This document shows positions 55,547 through 60,667 of a DNA stretch of 64,000 nt, in pieces. Source of the stretch: Flavobacterium tiangeerense (GTDB lineage Bacteria > Bacteroidota > Bacteroidia > Flavobacteriales > Flavobacteriaceae). The position numbers were made by a program, and so were the translations under genes. The stretch is taken from the NCBI RefSeq assembly GCF_007830355.1, contig NZ_VLKO01000003.1, forward strand, positions 248,231-312,230, read 5' to 3'. Each line of letters starts with the position of its first letter. The stretch's first letter is position 1. The notes under the pieces are model-generated. The model was given only the letters and a program-made list of their open reading frames with translations. It ran no database searches and was not told the origin of the DNA.

Positions 55547-56066
55547 TTAGAAACGGTAACCGAGTGTTATACCACCACGCGGAACAACATCATAAACGTT
55601 ATTGTTAAATAAATTTCGACCTACTCCTGCATTGATTTCAAAGACAAAGCCACGTTTGTGCACCCACTTTGACCCAAGACCAAAACCTAAGGCAAAATCA
55701 GTGAGCCTTTTTTCTCGTACGTTATAATTTTGACCATCATAATAGAAATTTGATTCTACCTCAGAATTTATCATACCAAATCCTTCTACAAAGAATCCAG
55801 CAGCTGGTTTTTTTCCAAAATAAGCACGGTAATATGGGGTTACATAATAAAAAGAATTAACATCTTCTCTTTTTCCATAAAAAAAAAGATATACCAACAC
55901 CTGAATCCTCTGTGATCAGCCGTTCATATGTTATTTCTACAATACCCGCTATTAGTAATACAGCATTTCCTTTAATTTCATTTTTCTTGAAGGTTGAAAC
56001 TTCTTTTTCTTGGCTAAACGCTATACAGCAGTAAAATAAACATAATAAAGTAGTTATTTTTCTCAT
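55547..56066 (-). pseudogene. Beta-barrel surface protein with a frameshift at a T9 run
   Basis: Two overlapping frames on this strand together make one protein of about 170 residues. The first (56066 down to 55857) begins with a signal peptide and runs to EDSGVGISFF, then falls out of frame to a stop. The second continues with FFYGKREDVNSFYYVTPYYRAYFGKKPAAGFFVEGFGM to the barrel-like end GITLGYRF. The break lies in a run of nine T (55887-55879); eight T would read GVGISFFYGKRED in one frame. It could be an inactive gene, a slippage-controlled (phase-variable) gene, or a sequencing error. The family resembles small DUF3575-like outer-membrane proteins. Confidence 0.7.
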
Positions 56067-56263: not shown

Positions 56264-56295
56264 TTGAACTTGGTATAGGATATTTTATACTTTTG
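56264..56295 (+). promoter_or_regulatory. Promoter of the LytTR regulator
   Basis: TTG at 56264-56266 and TACTTTTG at 56288-56295, spaced by 21 bases. Confidence 0.65.
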
Positions 56296-56377
56296 TTTTT
56301 AATTGTCGTTTAAAATACCACTTTTGAAAGTGCTGAAAATATTGAATTGTAGAGGATTATCAATTACAAACCCAAAA

Positions 56378-57181
56378 ATGCCATATAAATACATAATTAT
56401 AGATGACGACCCAGAAAGTCTCTTGCAAACTAAATTGGTTGCAGATGGATTTCAGGAACTTTGCTATGTGGGTTCCTCCTATAATGCCACTGACGGCTTA
56501 GATCTTGTATTAGAGTGCAAACCCGATATTATTTTTATAGAAATAGACCCAAAAGACTGCAAATCAAATTTGGCGTTGCATTTTATAGATTGCCTTTATA
56601 AATATTTGAGTGTCATGCCCATTTTTGTAGTTACTACTCGTGATAAAAAACTGGCGTATGACTCTTTTCAATATGGTGTTAGGGAATATTTGATCAAACC
56701 TATTGAGCCTTCTACTATTGTAAAATTTTTGTTGAGGTTAAATAAAAAAATAGAAAAGGAAGGAATTACAAATGAGATTGCAACATTTCACCATCAGCAG
56801 TTCCCTGTAGTAAGTTCAGTATCTGAAGTTCAATCCTTGCGTTTGTGTATTAAATCCTATGGTGACTACCGGTACATTGATGCAAAAGACATCTGTTTCC
56901 TAAAAGCAGATAATAATTCTACAGACATTCATTTGAACAATGGGGAACTAATAACGGCTTTTAAAACACTAAAATATTTTGAAACAGTTTTGTCTCAACC
57001 CTTCGCGAGGATTCATAAAAGTTACATCGTAAACAGAAACTACATTTCTAGAATTCACAGCGGGAATGCTCTTTGCTATATAAAAAACTCCAACGCACGC
57101 ATACCTTATTCTAAAATGTACAAAGCGAATGTTGACCAAATTATCACTGATTTTGCAAACGGGAATTATTTAGAAATATAA
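56378..57181 (+). CDS. LytTR-family response regulator with a Glu at the phosphoacceptor site
   Basis: A 267-residue regulator with an N-terminal receiver domain and a C-terminal LytTR DNA-binding domain (DYRYIDAKDICFLKADNN, HLNNGELITAFKTL, FARIHKSYIVNRNYISRI). The receiver has the acidic pair (IIIDDDP, residues 9-11), Thr in VVTTRDK and Lys in EYLIKPIEP. The phosphoacceptor Asp is replaced by Glu55 (PDIIFIEIDP). Glu there often mimics phosphorylation, so the protein may be constitutively active or uncoupled from a kinase. ATG 56378 starts the receiver domain exactly; an earlier TTG at 56303 is less likely. No kinase of the LytS type is adjacent. The peptide genes come next. Confidence 0.85.
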   Translation: MPYKYIIIDDDPESLLQTKLVADGFQELCYVGSSYNATDGLDLVLECKPDIIFIEIDPKDCKSNLALHFIDCLYKYLSVMPIFVVTTRDKKLAYDSFQYGVREYLIKPIEPSTIVKFLLRLNKKIEKEGITNEIATFHHQQFPVVSSVSEVQSLRLCIKSYGDYRYIDAKDICFLKADNNSTDIHLNNGELITAFKTLKYFETVLSQPFARIHKSYIVNRNYISRIHSGNALCYIKNSNARIPYSKMYKANVDQIITDFANGNYLEI

Positions 57182-57204
57182 ATTTCCACACTTTACCCAA
57201 GTTT

Positions 57205-57223
57205 CGTACCCGTACACTCGTAC
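57205..57223 (+). promoter_or_regulatory. Triple CGTAC motif upstream of the peptide genes
   Basis: Three CGTAC words (57205-57209, 57211-57215, 57219-57223) lie between the LytTR gene and the first peptide gene. They might be part of a regulator site. The evidence is weak. Confidence 0.25.
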
Positions 57224-57354
57224 ACAGACTTGTTCTACCATTAACCCATTTTTATTGATTGTTGTTTACTTTTTGTATAGTAGTTTTACCTCAAGATAAG
57301 CTGTTAATCAGCGCTGTAAAGAGTTAAAATAATATAAATATAAAACCCCAAATC

Positions 57355-57600
57355 ATGAAAAAATCAATTGCTACATTAGGATTATTCACGTTATTAATGG
57401 TACTTACTTCAGTAGAATCAAACGCGAAAATTACTCCATTAAGTAATAACAACGGACAAATTGAGATTTTGAATTTAAATACGATGAAGTTGGATATTAC
57501 TGGTAATGCTTCAGTTGGGGGAAACAAGAAAAACGATACGCCTCCTCCGACTGAACCTACTTTATTGGACAAAATATCTGATTGGTGGGATAGTTTATAA
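57355..57600 (+). CDS. Small secreted-type peptide precursor A (NASVGGNKKND family)
   Basis: An 81-residue precursor that I do not recognise as a named family. A signal peptide (basic start, hydrophobic core, end near ESNA) is followed by a short linker, then MKLDITGNASVGGNKKND at about residues 44-61. A 20-residue tail (TPPPTEP then TLLDKISDWWDSL) follows, which could form an amphipathic helix. The 11-residue motif is shared with the neighbour at the same residue positions. Gly-Gly in the motif resembles a processing site, but no peptidase or ABC exporter is adjacent. It lies between a LytTR regulator and a TPR histidine kinase. Confidence 0.75.
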   Translation: MKKSIATLGLFTLLMVLTSVESNAKITPLSNNNGQIEILNLNTMKLDITGNASVGGNKKNDTPPPTEPTLLDKISDWWDSL

Positions 57601-57638
57601 AAAGATATAGCAGATACAATTCTTTAAAAAAATTAATA

Positions 57639-57824
57639 ATGAAAAATACAATTATAACAACTGTTTTAATAGGATTAGTATTGGTGTTAACCTCCTTTAC
57701 CTTTAAGCAAGAATCTGCTCCATTAATAATGAATGCATCGAAAGTGATGACTTTTAAAATAGAAAACGTAAATATGGATCTTATCGCAAATGCATCTGTA
57801 GGAGGAAATAAAAAGAATGACTAG
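57639..57824 (+). CDS. Small secreted-type peptide precursor B (NASVGGNKKND family)
   Basis: A 61-residue precursor with a signal-like N-terminus (basic, then a hydrophobic run ending near SFTF), a variable middle, and MDLIANASVGGNKKND as the last 16 residues. It ends exactly where precursor A has its extra tail. The shared 11 residues (51-61) are coded with nine synonymous codon differences of eleven, so they are kept at the protein level. It follows precursor A by 38 bases and is probably on the same transcript. A terminator comes next. Confidence 0.75.
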   Translation: MKNTIITTVLIGLVLVLTSFTFKQESAPLIMNASKVMTFKIENVNMDLIANASVGGNKKND

Positions 57825-57848
57825 TACCTTGTACTGTTAAAATTTATC

Positions 57849-57881
57849 AAAGCTGTCAAATACATGACAGCTTTTTTTTTT
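57849..57881 (+). terminator. Terminator after the peptide genes
   Basis: AAAGCTGTCA (57849-57858) pairs with TGACAGCTTT (57865-57874) and is followed by a T run. Confidence 0.88.
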
Positions 57882-57907
57882 GACGACCATATAATTCCCT
57901 ATTTTTG
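57880..57907 (+). promoter_or_regulatory. Promoter of the TPR histidine kinase gene
   Basis: TTG at 57880-57882 and TATTTTTG at 57900-57907, spaced by exactly 17 bases, a strong match. The -33 element lies at the end of the terminator T run. Confidence 0.75.
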
Positions 57908-57927
57908 GTATTATAACTCATCGCCCA

Positions 57928-59952
57928 TTGAAGCCTACTTTTTATATTATTCTTTTGTTTCTTATTTTGGGTGTGAGCTGCACTCAAAAAAATACAGTTT
58001 CTAAAAATGAAGAGAAACCAAAAGATAGTTTAGAGATTTTTTTCTCCTTGGCTAACAATTTTGATTTATCTCTAGATCAAAGACAGCAGTACATACAAAA
58101 AGCTTCGGCAATAGTCAAACTTCAAAATAATGATTCTGTCTACCGAACAAATTTATTTAAAATAGCCAATCGATATTATAACTTAGATCGTTTTGAGGAT
58201 TATAAAAAAACGGTTACTTATATTATAAAAAAATCTGAAGCCAAACAAGATGCTCAAAGTGTAGCAAAAGGAAATGCTTATTTAGGCGACTATTTTCTTT
58301 TGAAAGAACGGGCAGACAGTGCTTTTTATTACTACAATAAAGCCGAAAATAAATATTTAGAGTTAAATGATACCTATAATGTTGCGTTAACGATTCTTAA
58401 TAAAGCCACGTTACAGTATATGGAAAGCGATTTTTTAGGAGCTGAAATGGCAGTTTTTAAAGTTTTAAAAGTTTTAAAAAACACAAATTATAACGATATT
58501 TTATACGATTCTTACAATCTTCTGGGTCAGATCTATAATGAACTTGAGGATTACAGCAATGCTATCGAGTATCATAACAAGGCATTATCTAGTATAGATG
58601 ATAAACTAATGAAATCGTTTGCTCAGCCAAAAGCAACTTCTTACAATAACATTGGATTTGTATATCAAAACAAGAAAATGTTTCGTGAAGCAAAAACATA
58701 TTTTGAAAAGGGACTAGAACAGAAAAATGTTTTTAAAGATAAGCCCGCTTTGTTTGCTATGTTGTTAAATAATTTAGCCTATACTAAATTTCAACTTAAA
58801 GAGAATGAGGGGTTACCTCAATTGTTTTTTCAATCTTTAAGGATAAGAGACAGTTTGCAAATTACTACAGGTATTATTGCAAGTAAAATTAATATTTCAG
58901 AGTATTTTTTGTCAAAAAAGGATACTCTAAAAGCTTTACAATTTGCTAATGAAGCATTGTATTTATCTAAAAAAGCAAACAATTCTCGTAGTACATTAAA
59001 TTCATTAAAGCAATTGTCTTTGGTAGACCCTAAAAATACAGCATATTATAGTAAAGAATATATTGTAGTTAGTGAAAGGAGACAAAAATCAGATCGTGCT
59101 ATAGGAAACAAATTTTCTCGTATAGAATTTGAAACAGAAGAAGTTATTGAAAAAAATGACTACTTAACCACCAAAAACCGAAATTTATTATACGGTTTGA
59201 TTTCATTTGTAACAGTAGGATTGTTGCTTTACCTAGTTAAAAATCAAAGAAATAAAAACAAGGTGTTGCTTTATAAACAAAGACAACAAAAAGCAAATGA
59301 AGATATTTACAATTTAATGATTTCGCAACAAAGTACGATAGACTTAGGGCGAGTTAAAGAAAAGAAAAGAGTAGCTCAAGAGTTGCACGATGGGGTTTTG
59401 GGTAGAATATTTGGTCTTAGGATAAACTTAGACACCTTGAACCAATTTGATGATTCAAATGCTATTGAAAAACGAAATGAATACTTAGTAGAACTGCGTA
59501 ACATTGAGCAAGATTTACGGGAAATATCACATGATTTAAGCAGAGAGAATAAAGAGTTGATCAATAATTTTGTAGTCATTTTACACAATCTTCTTGAAGA
59601 ACAAAGAAAAACTTTTTCTACAAATTTACACGCAAGTATTGACAATGCTATTGATTGGGACGCAATAAGTAATTCTATCAAAATCAATATTTATAGAATT
59701 GTGCAAGAAAGTTTACAAAACATAAATAAATATGCACATGCTAATTCCATCCATGTGAAGTGTTTAAAAAATGAGGATCAACTAATTTTAGAAATTATTG
59801 ATGATGGAATTGGTTTTAACACAATCAAAGCAAAAAAAGGAATAGGTTTGCAGAATATCAGGTCAAGAGCCTTAGATTGTAATGGGACTGCAATAATTAA
59901 TTCTATAATTAGTAAAGGGACCCATATTACAATTACAATACATTTAGTATAA
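57928..59952 (+). CDS. TPR-containing membrane histidine kinase (HisKA_3 type)
   Basis: A 674-residue sensor kinase starting at TTG. The N-terminus has a signal and a possible lipobox (LILGVSC). About 370 residues of TPR repeats (for example YYNKAENKYLELND, AIEYHNKALSSI and NIGFVYQNKKMFREAKTYFEKGL) face the periplasm. A membrane segment lies at about residues 420-438 (YGLISFVTVGLLLYLV). The cytosolic part has the HisKA_3 dimerisation helix with phosphoacceptor His487 (AQELHDGVLG) and an HATPase_c domain (IVQESLQNINKYAHA, IIDDGIGF, KGIGLQNIRSRA). It is followed by its likely response regulator after 19 bases, and preceded by the peptide genes. Confidence 0.9.
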   Translation: MKPTFYIILLFLILGVSCTQKNTVSKNEEKPKDSLEIFFSLANNFDLSLDQRQQYIQKASAIVKLQNNDSVYRTNLFKIANRYYNLDRFEDYKKTVTYIIKKSEAKQDAQSVAKGNAYLGDYFLLKERADSAFYYYNKAENKYLELNDTYNVALTILNKATLQYMESDFLGAEMAVFKVLKVLKNTNYNDILYDSYNLLGQIYNELEDYSNAIEYHNKALSSIDDKLMKSFAQPKATSYNNIGFVYQNKKMFREAKTYFEKGLEQKNVFKDKPALFAMLLNNLAYTKFQLKENEGLPQLFFQSLRIRDSLQITTGIIASKINISEYFLSKKDTLKALQFANEALYLSKKANNSRSTLNSLKQLSLVDPKNTAYYSKEYIVVSERRQKSDRAIGNKFSRIEFETEEVIEKNDYLTTKNRNLLYGLISFVTVGLLLYLVKNQRNKNKVLLYKQRQQKANEDIYNLMISQQSTIDLGRVKEKKRVAQELHDGVLGRIFGLRINLDTLNQFDDSNAIEKRNEYLVELRNIEQDLREISHDLSRENKELINNFVVILHNLLEEQRKTFSTNLHASIDNAIDWDAISNSIKINIYRIVQESLQNINKYAHANSIHVKCLKNEDQLILEIIDDGIGFNTIKAKKGIGLQNIRSRALDCNGTAIINSIISKGTHITITIHLV

Positions 59953-59971
59953 ACATTAAATACTAGAAAAA

Positions 59972-60667
59972 ATGACAATTGAAGCCCCAGCTAAAATTAA
60001 ATTTAATAATAATATTTTAATCGTAGATGATCATCCTTTTATAATTGAAGGGTATAAGAATGCTATTACTCGCTATAAAACCGATGAGTACACATTCATG
60101 ATTGATCAAGCTAAAAACTGTGAAACAGCCTATGATATTATTACTAATCCAGAAACGGCTCCTTTTGATATTGCTTTCCTTGACATCAGTATGCCTCCTT
60201 TTGAAAGTAAAAATATTTTCTCAGGTGAGGATTTAGCTAAGTTACTCCAAAGATACATGCCTAATTGTAAAATTATTTTACTGACTATGTATACTGAATT
60301 ATTGAAAATCAAAACGATTGTTAAAACCATCAATCCAGCTGGTTTGATTGTAAAAAATGATCTTAATTTTGAAGTTTTGATTTTTGCAATTGACACGATT
60401 ATCAACAATAAAAAATACTATAGTGATTCTATTGTACGTATGTTGGAATTAGTAGATGCAGATGCTGTTGAGATAGACGTTTTTGACAAACAAATATTAT
60501 TTCACTTATCTAAAGGAACAAAAAAAAGCGAATTAACACACTATATTCTTTTATCAGCAGGTGCCATTGAGAGAAGAAAGAAAGATTTAATGTTACTCTT
60601 AAAAATTGAAAGCGGATTAGATAAAGATCTGGTTCAAGAAGCTAAAGCAAAAGGATTGTTGTATTAA
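59972..60667 (+). CDS. NarL-like response regulator
   Basis: A 231-residue response regulator. The receiver has the acidic pair (ILIVDDHP), a normal phosphoacceptor Asp in FLDISMP, and Lys in GLIVKND. The C-terminal part (FDKQILFHLSKGTKKSELTH, then LSAGAIERRKKDLMLLL) fits a NarL/LuxR helix-turn-helix, though it is more divergent than usual. It lies 19 bases after the TPR histidine kinase and is its natural partner. In contrast to the LytTR protein upstream, its phosphoacceptor site is intact. Confidence 0.87.
   Translation: MTIEAPAKIKFNNNILIVDDHPFIIEGYKNAITRYKTDEYTFMIDQAKNCETAYDIITNPETAPFDIAFLDISMPPFESKNIFSGEDLAKLLQRYMPNCKIILLTMYTELLKIKTIVKTINPAGLIVKNDLNFEVLIFAIDTIINNKKYYSDSIVRMLELVDADAVEIDVFDKQILFHLSKGTKKSELTHYILLSAGAIERRKKDLMLLLKIESGLDKDLVQEAKAKGLLY

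What the first reader, a model, noticed from the sequence alone, without database searches (positions are those of the whole stretch)
56264..60667. Candidate peptide signalling module: LytTR regulator, two NASVGGNKKND peptides, TPR histidine kinase, NarL-like regulator
Two adjacent small precursors with signal-like N-termini share the 11-residue motif NASVGGNKKND at residues 51-61 of both. Nine of the eleven codons differ and all nine changes are silent (57505-57537 compared with 57789-57821), so the sequence is held by selection on the peptide. One precursor ends at the motif. The other carries a 20-residue tail that could form an amphipathic helix. They lie between a LytTR regulator, a class often tied to peptide quorum sensing in Firmicutes, and a two-component pair whose sensor has a large periplasmic TPR domain. 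A secreted peptide sensed by the TPR kinase is an attractive reading but an inference; the kinase has its own promoter.
Basis: partly seen in the sequence, partly recalled or inferred. Interest (0 to 1): 0.82.

Follow-up and report, generated by a model that had tools for sequence, protein, structure and literature searches.

The report
Swappable peptide-pheromone receptor locus in Flavobacterium
A four-gene locus in Flavobacterium encodes small peptide precursors, often carrying several identical copies of a roughly 14-residue unit, beside a sensor kinase whose predicted outer domain changes together with the peptide from species to species, so it is likely a bacterial pheromone-and-receptor pair, of a type our literature searches did not find described in this phylum.

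Summary
The locus is LytTR regulator, signal-peptide-like precursor(s), lipobox/TPR histidine kinase, NarL-type regulator. All 80 related loci recovered keep this order as far as their contigs reach. In 45 of 78 complete precursors the unit is repeated in tandem (about 2-6 copies, usually 14 residues ending in Asp). Copies differ almost only silently (pN/pS 0.02), yet the unit changes in concert between species and between proteins filed under one species name. Of nine locus pairs whose LytTR, kinase core and response regulator differ by at most 6%, the eight with changed units differ by 9-31% in the TPR domain; the one with nearly the same precursor differs by 2%. Two further pairs share peptide and TPR domain while the flanks differ. 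This is a swappable pherotype cassette and points to the TPR domain as the peptide receptor. Its predicted fold matches, among other TPR proteins, the Rap/NprR pheromone receptors of Bacillota, but it is predicted to be periplasmic. LytTR has Glu at the phospho-Asp site (81 of 81), and a triple 21-bp-spaced repeat precedes the precursor gene. Secretion, processing, binding and cell-to-cell action are untested.

The parts
56378..57181 (+). LytTR-type response regulator (267 aa); Glu55 at the usual phospho-acceptor position
   Evidence: Pfam LytTR 6e-17, Response_reg 4e-7; Glu55 in 81 of 81, Asp9 and Lys107 in 81 of 81
57195..57238 (+). AC-N19-AC-N19-AC triple direct repeat with 21-bp spacing, candidate LytTR operator
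   Evidence: Found in 74 of 80 loci within 80 nt of the LytTR stop, 0.88 expected from shuffles; alignment of 75 loci
57281..57289 (+). TAGTTTTAC, conserved candidate -7 promoter element (Bacteroidota type; the name is recalled)
   Evidence: Conserved columns in the alignment of 75 loci; sequence
57355..57600 (+). Precursor 1 (81 aa): signal-like N-terminus, unit NASVGGNKKND, then a 20-residue tail
   Evidence: tail LLDKISDWWDSL also in L059 and similar in L034
57505..57537 (+). Unit motif NASVGGNKKND in precursor 1
57639..57824 (+). Precursor 2 (61 aa): signal-like N-terminus, unit at the C-terminus
57789..57821 (+). Unit motif NASVGGNKKND in precursor 2, 9 silent changes against precursor 1
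57705..59166 (+). Region that corresponds to the variable peptide/TPR cassette in relatives (precursor 2 residue 23 to about kinase residue 370-413); ends approximate
   Evidence: DNA identity along sister loci
57849..57881 (+). Terminator-like hairpin with T run after precursor 2
   Evidence: a perfect-stem element of this kind in 50 of 72 loci
57928..59952 (+). TPR histidine kinase (674 aa, TTG start): lipobox-like Cys18, TPR domain, one hydrophobic segment, HisKA_3, HATPase_c
   Evidence: Cys18 in 72 of 72, His487 in 72 of 72
58006..59037 (+). TPR sensor domain (about residues 27-370), candidate peptide receptor
   Evidence: AlphaFold2 model, mean pLDDT 89.6; fold matches; divergence with the peptide
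59972..60667 (+). NarL-type response regulator (231 aa)
   Evidence: Response_reg 9.8e-11; follows the kinase in 72 of 72 complete loci, acceptor Asp in 72 of 72

Best explanation
The locus is most likely a peptide-pheromone system in which a precursor, predicted to be exported by a Sec-type signal, would be processed into about 10-14-residue peptides ending in Asp that are likely sensed by the predicted periplasmic TPR domain of the neighbouring histidine kinase. The kinase would phosphorylate the NarL-type regulator encoded directly behind it. The LytTR regulator has Glu in place of the phospho-acceptor Asp in all 81 loci; it likely drives the precursor gene through a triple 21-bp-spaced repeat without needing phosphorylation. 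Peptide and TPR domain form a cassette that diverges or is exchanged as one unit inside a conserved locus, as expected of a pherotype. Shown by sequence: gene order, tandem copies, selection on each copy, joint change of unit and TPR domain, cassette sharing, conserved repeat. Inferred: export, cleavage, binding, direction of signalling, and action between cells rather than within one envelope.
For: Four-gene order: precursor in 80 of 81 loci (window plus 80), kinase plus response regulator complete in 72; the remaining contigs end early. Tandem copies in 45 of 78 complete precursors. pN/pS between adjacent copies 0.022 in 46 precursors. Nine pairs with LytTR, kinase core and RR all at most 6% divergent: eight with changed units have TPR divergence 9.3-31.3%, one with a nearly identical precursor has 2.1%. 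Shared peptide and TPR with divergent flanks: L118/L127 and L117/L136. Partial Mantel of unit against TPR controlling for kinase core, LytTR and RR: r 0.207, p 0.003; LytTR and kinase core not significant (37 loci). Different units in proteins filed under one species name: F. gawalongense P0029 against L067, F. yafengii P0040 against L072. Predicted TPR fold matches LGN-peptide complexes and Rap/NprR pheromone receptors. Triple repeat before the precursor in 74 of 80 loci.
Against: No experiment shows export, cleavage or binding, and no signal-peptide or topology predictor was run; those statements rest on reading the sequence. No dedicated exporter, protease or outer-membrane route was found among the eight neighbouring proteins scanned. 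Changed TPR residues are not concentrated in the A helices, which I take as the concave side: A 0.254, B 0.344 in 53 close pairs. The response regulator also shows a partial correlation with the unit (r 0.206, p 0.019), and partial Mantel tests are known to be liberal. TPR superhelices are common, so the fold match alone shows no function. One divergent LytTR relative (L175) has no peptide or kinase in view.
Confidence: 0.72

Rival explanations
1. The same peptide-receptor pair acts inside the cell's own envelope, as a periplasmic self-sensing or export-timing signal, rather than between cells.
For: Precursor and sensor are both predicted to sit in the periplasm, and no release system was found beside them.
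Against: Rapid diversification and exchange of matched peptide/TPR cassettes is easier to explain by contact with other strains' peptides.
Confidence: 0.15
2. The precursor is an uncleaved repeat protein (envelope or surface component), and the TPR domain diversifies for another reason, such as a foreign ligand or phage; the link is neighbourhood only.
For: No cleavage has been shown, and tandem repeats can arise by slippage.
Against: Single-copy 59-61-aa precursors keep the same unit at the C-terminus. Spacers between units vary while the unit does not. When the peptide is shared, the TPR domain is shared although the flanks are not. Signal region and promoter stay 90-100% identical in most sister pairs in which unit and TPR change (exceptions are the L077/L086 promoter at 0.74 and the window/L059 signal region at 0.74).
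Confidence: 0.05
3. The peptide is an antimicrobial and the kinase is its sensing or immunity module.
For: Precursor 1 has a tail that could form an amphipathic helix; one of 44 precursors hits Bacteriocin_IIc weakly (E 0.015) and one hits the GatB leaderless bacteriocin model (E 6.6e-5).
Against: The helical tail was seen only in the window and its nearest relatives; the short Gly-rich acidic-ended units do not look membrane-active; no immunity or transport gene lies in the window's locus.
Confidence: 0.05

Closest known systems
RRNPPA receptors with Phr-type peptides, including tandemly duplicated Phr propeptides (PMC11343458: abstract, outline and two passages read)
   Same: TPR superhelix as predicted receptor, adjacent gene for a signal-bearing precursor, several peptide copies in one precursor
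   Different: Described in Bacillota with re-imported peptides (abstracts); here the TPR domain is fused to a histidine kinase, predicted periplasmic, in a Gram-negative genus
ComQXPA and Agr-type two-component peptide systems (recalled; ComQXPA census PMC4008528 seen as a listing with start of abstract)
   Same: Peptide gene beside a sensor kinase and response regulator; polymorphic peptide/sensor cassette
   Different: No ComQ or AgrB homologue among the neighbours scanned, no modified residue evident, sensor is a TPR domain instead of a polytopic membrane domain
Fungal KEX2-processed repeated pheromone precursors such as alpha-factor (PMC6339444: listing and start of abstract)
   Same: Signal-like N-terminus followed by identical tandem peptide copies
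   Different: Bacterial; no KEX2-like dibasic site shared by all units; the candidate receptor is a two-component kinase

Membership tests
RRNPPA (Rap/NprR-Phr) | TPR superhelix receptor fold | tested here: met
RRNPPA (Rap/NprR-Phr) | Receptor is a soluble Rap phosphatase or HTH regulator, without a fused histidine kinase | tested here: not met
   HisKA_3 and HATPase_c on the same chain
RRNPPA (Rap/NprR-Phr) | Receptor in the cytoplasm, peptide re-imported | not testable with these tools
   Sequence reading predicts the opposite: lipobox-like Cys in 72 of 72 and a hydrophobic segment followed by basic residues before the kinase core
RRNPPA (Rap/NprR-Phr) | Precursor with signal-like N-terminus encoded beside the receptor | tested here: met
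ComQXPA | Peptide gene, sensor kinase and response regulator adjacent | tested here: met
ComQXPA | ComQ isoprenyl transferase in the locus | tested here: not met
   Pfam scan of the locus proteins and eight neighbouring window proteins
ComQXPA | Trp in the peptide for prenylation | tested here: not met
   No Trp in the repeat units listed; precursor 1's tail has Trp outside the unit
Agr | AgrB-type processing protein and Cys in the peptide for a thiolactone ring | tested here: not met
   No such Pfam match in the window locus; Cys in repeat units only in L073 and one copy of L112
LytTR response regulators | LytTR DNA-binding domain | tested here: met
   Pfam 6e-17
LytTR response regulators | Phospho-acceptor Asp in the receiver domain | tested here: not met
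   Glu in 81 of 81
Double-glycine (ComC-like or bacteriocin) leader peptides | Match to the family models and a C39-type exporter nearby | tested here: not met
   No match for the two window precursors; among 44 precursors one weak ComC hit (E 0.014) and one weak Bacteriocin_IIc hit (E 0.015); no such exporter among the eight neighbouring window proteins scanned

The most novel reading that the evidence does not exclude
This is a previously undescribed family of Bacteroidota peptide pheromones: alpha-factor-like multicopy precursors read by an extracytoplasmic, kinase-fused counterpart of the Rap/NprR TPR receptors, split into many pherotypes that are exchanged as a cassette and set species- and strain-specific communication across Flavobacterium.
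Probability: 0.6. Interest if true: 0.95.

Novelty: new variant of a known kind. Interest (0 to 1): 0.88.

Why it matters
Ten full-text searches found no description of a peptide-pheromone system in Bacteroidota; most subscription papers and all bioRxiv preprints are outside that library, and only listings were seen except for one paper. If right, the finding gives the phylum a peptide language that can be tested at once with short synthetic peptides. It shows a pheromone receptor built from a TPR domain outside the cytoplasm, and offers dozens of natural ligand-receptor pairs for specificity work. It also bears on annotation: several of these precursors are named '3-oxoacyl-ACP reductase' in public records.

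Tried and rejected
Exact GGNKKND DNA pattern in the genus: only 3 of 398 genomes; too strict, because the unit varies. Single-sequence search in the family sample: 38 of 397 genomes at E<=0.1, but apart from the window's own genome the best E was 0.004, near chance. LytTR profile at E<=1e-45 in the family sample: 3 of 397 genomes, all in the window's genus (1 of 237 genera); only 6 candidates per genome were scored, so distant ones may be missed. Expected the changed TPR residues to concentrate in the A helices; the opposite was found. Considered and set aside: double-glycine bacteriocin, structural repeat protein, Agr or ComQXPA membership. Recent gene conversion as the reason for identical units was rejected because of the many silent differences. 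Known bias: repeat copies were recognised by amino-acid similarity, which lowers pN; the arrays allowed up to 2 of 14 mismatches per adjacent copy, and the observed amino-acid mismatch (1.5%) is far below that. Rows left out: one search uses 37 loci (F. johnsoniae-like and DGGSR types dropped, last 14 residues taken as unit); one search leaves out the F. johnsoniae-like type, so one search was run on all 72 loci. The pairs share loci and are not independent; the 74 of 80 loci with the operator repeat are related by descent. The AU test used too few replicates by the program's own warning. One search found 549 relatives but lists only 120, of which 35 or so sequences were read.
Full report
Observation. 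The two small genes, the shared 11-residue motif and the silent codon differences are as described. The window lies in a 3.5-Mb assembly; named relatives are mostly Flavobacterium. No further clear copy of the peptide was found in the assembly. No Pfam or NCBIfam model fits the two window peptides, and 44 diverse relatives give only scattered hits to unrelated models.

Association. Searching 398 genomes of the genus with precursor 2 gave 22 genomes at E<=0.01. In 21 the peptide lies next to an orthologous LytTR gene (G623); the exception, G446, looks like a chance hit. Independently, LytTR was used as bait in genome contigs: 314 relatives, of which the best 80 were kept. With the window that makes 81 loci. 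A precursor follows LytTR in 80; the one without (L089) ends 82 bp after LytTR. A complete kinase is present in 72, each followed by the response regulator; the other nine contigs end within 1.6 kb of LytTR. LytTR stop to precursor start has a median of 176 bp (range 167-844). In the window the flanking genes are housekeeping: a class II tRNA synthetase (glycyl type) upstream and an AIR-synthase-related protein (ThiL type) downstream (gene names from general knowledge). ORFs of the same lengths flank L071 and L127.

Spread. A LytTR profile match at E<=1e-60 occurs in 244 of 398 genus genomes. By hand count about 55 of these form a weaker group (about 1e-62 to 1e-79). Eight genomes of that group were examined. 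One was an ordinary orthologue with five copies (L172). Three had diverged multicopy precursors: L177 with five copies of an IGGRSQVPSFE-type unit, L178 with three of IGGRSSQGEFA type, L179 with imperfect copies. Three had a different small lipobox peptide in the same place (L173, L174, L176), and one had no peptide or kinase in view (L175). In a family-wide sample the LytTR profile at E<=1e-45 was found in 3 of 397 genomes, all of the window's genus. The precursor profile matched 549 database proteins at E<=0.01 (best 120 listed).

Precursor architecture. In 45 of 78 complete precursors the part after the signal-like N-terminus holds tandem copies, about 2-6 by eye, mostly of a 14-residue unit such as LVGGGSAGGNKKVD. 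Other relatives carry one copy (the window type) or two unlike units (many of the F. johnsoniae-like group). 69 of 78 complete precursors end in Asp; the rest end in KVDE (4), KTDN (3) or WDSL (2). Among adjacent copies in 46 precursors (one of them open at a contig end) synonymous differences are 0.318 per site and non-synonymous ones 0.0069, ratio 0.022; 32 of 46 have none of the latter. So the copies are held by selection on the peptide. Yet the unit differs between close species in all copies at once, and proteins filed under one species name differ: F. gawalongense P0029 against L067, F. yafengii P0040 against L072.

Receptor. Among all 72 complete loci, nine pairs have LytTR, kinase core and response regulator each at most 6% divergent. 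In eight of them the unit differs and the TPR domain is 9.3-31.3% divergent, for example L071/L072 (TPR 29.5%; kinase core 3.1, LytTR 2.6, RR 1.3%; unit 4 of 14 changed) and L077/L086 (TPR 24.6%; 0.4, 1.5, 2.6%; unit 1 of 14 changed). In the ninth, L130/L137, the precursors are nearly identical and the TPR domain differs by 2.1%. At DNA level the variable block begins after the signal region of the precursor and ends near kinase residue 370-413. The reverse also occurs. L118/L127 have identical precursor tails and TPR-region DNA of 97-100% in eight consecutive blocks, with LytTR at 84-90% and kinase core at 87-95%. L117/L136 have identical units and TPR DNA of 95-98%, with LytTR at 86-90% and kinase core at 88-93%.

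Statistics. Across 37 loci the unit distance correlates with TPR distance after control for kinase core, LytTR and RR (r 0.207, p 0.003); LytTR and kinase core do not (p 0.59 and 0.89); the RR does (r 0.206, p 0.019). In 61 close pairs of all types the peptide distance follows TPR (rho 0.72) more than kinase core (0.56) or LytTR (0.33); pairs are not independent. The TPR tree and the flank tree reject each other's topology (AU test with few replicates).

Control. LytTR keeps Asp9 and Lys107 in 81 of 81 loci but has Glu at the acceptor position in all, which suggests a phosphorylation-independent state. Between LytTR and precursor, AC-N19-AC-N19-AC occurs in 74 of 80 loci against 0.88 expected from shuffles; 21-bp spacing is what stacked LytTR sites would show (general knowledge). 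A terminator-like hairpin follows precursor 2, and a similar element was found in 50 of 72 loci.

Reading. The simplest account is a pheromone-receptor cassette inside a fixed chromosomal locus. What is shown is the comparative pattern. Export, cleavage, binding, the phosphotransfer partner and the regulated genes are inferred or unknown. Results against a simple model: the B helices vary more than the A helices, which I take as the concave side, the response regulator also correlates with the unit, and no exporter is seen among the neighbours scanned. The closest printed case found is tandem Phr propeptides of Bacillus phages (PMC11343458; abstract, outline and two passages read).

Noticed in passing
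window 55547-56066 (- strand): A small secreted-looking ORF (69 aa) and an overlapping 117-aa ORF in another frame look like one gene interrupted near a run of A; the nearest relative (L058) shows a related reading frame at the contig edge.
   Followed up: no
L173, L174, L176: A related but distinct locus: LytTR, a 54-58-aa peptide with a lipobox-like Cys and a Pro-rich end (GPGDxxLPKP type), then a TPR kinase, with a response regulator on the other strand. It may be a second signalling family.
   Followed up: partly
L118, L127: Two species with strain names of one series (F. undicola BBQ-18, F. sufflavum BBQ-12) share a nearly identical peptide/TPR cassette in divergent flanks, suggesting recent exchange.
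   Followed up: partly
P0029, P0033, P0035, P0037, P0040, P0071, P0127: Repeat precursors are annotated as '3-oxoacyl-ACP reductase' in public records, although they are 78-81-aa repeat peptides.
   Followed up: no
window 57541-57597: Precursor 1 carries a conserved tail (PTLLDKISDWW) after the unit, seen also in L059 and L034; its role is unknown.
   Followed up: no
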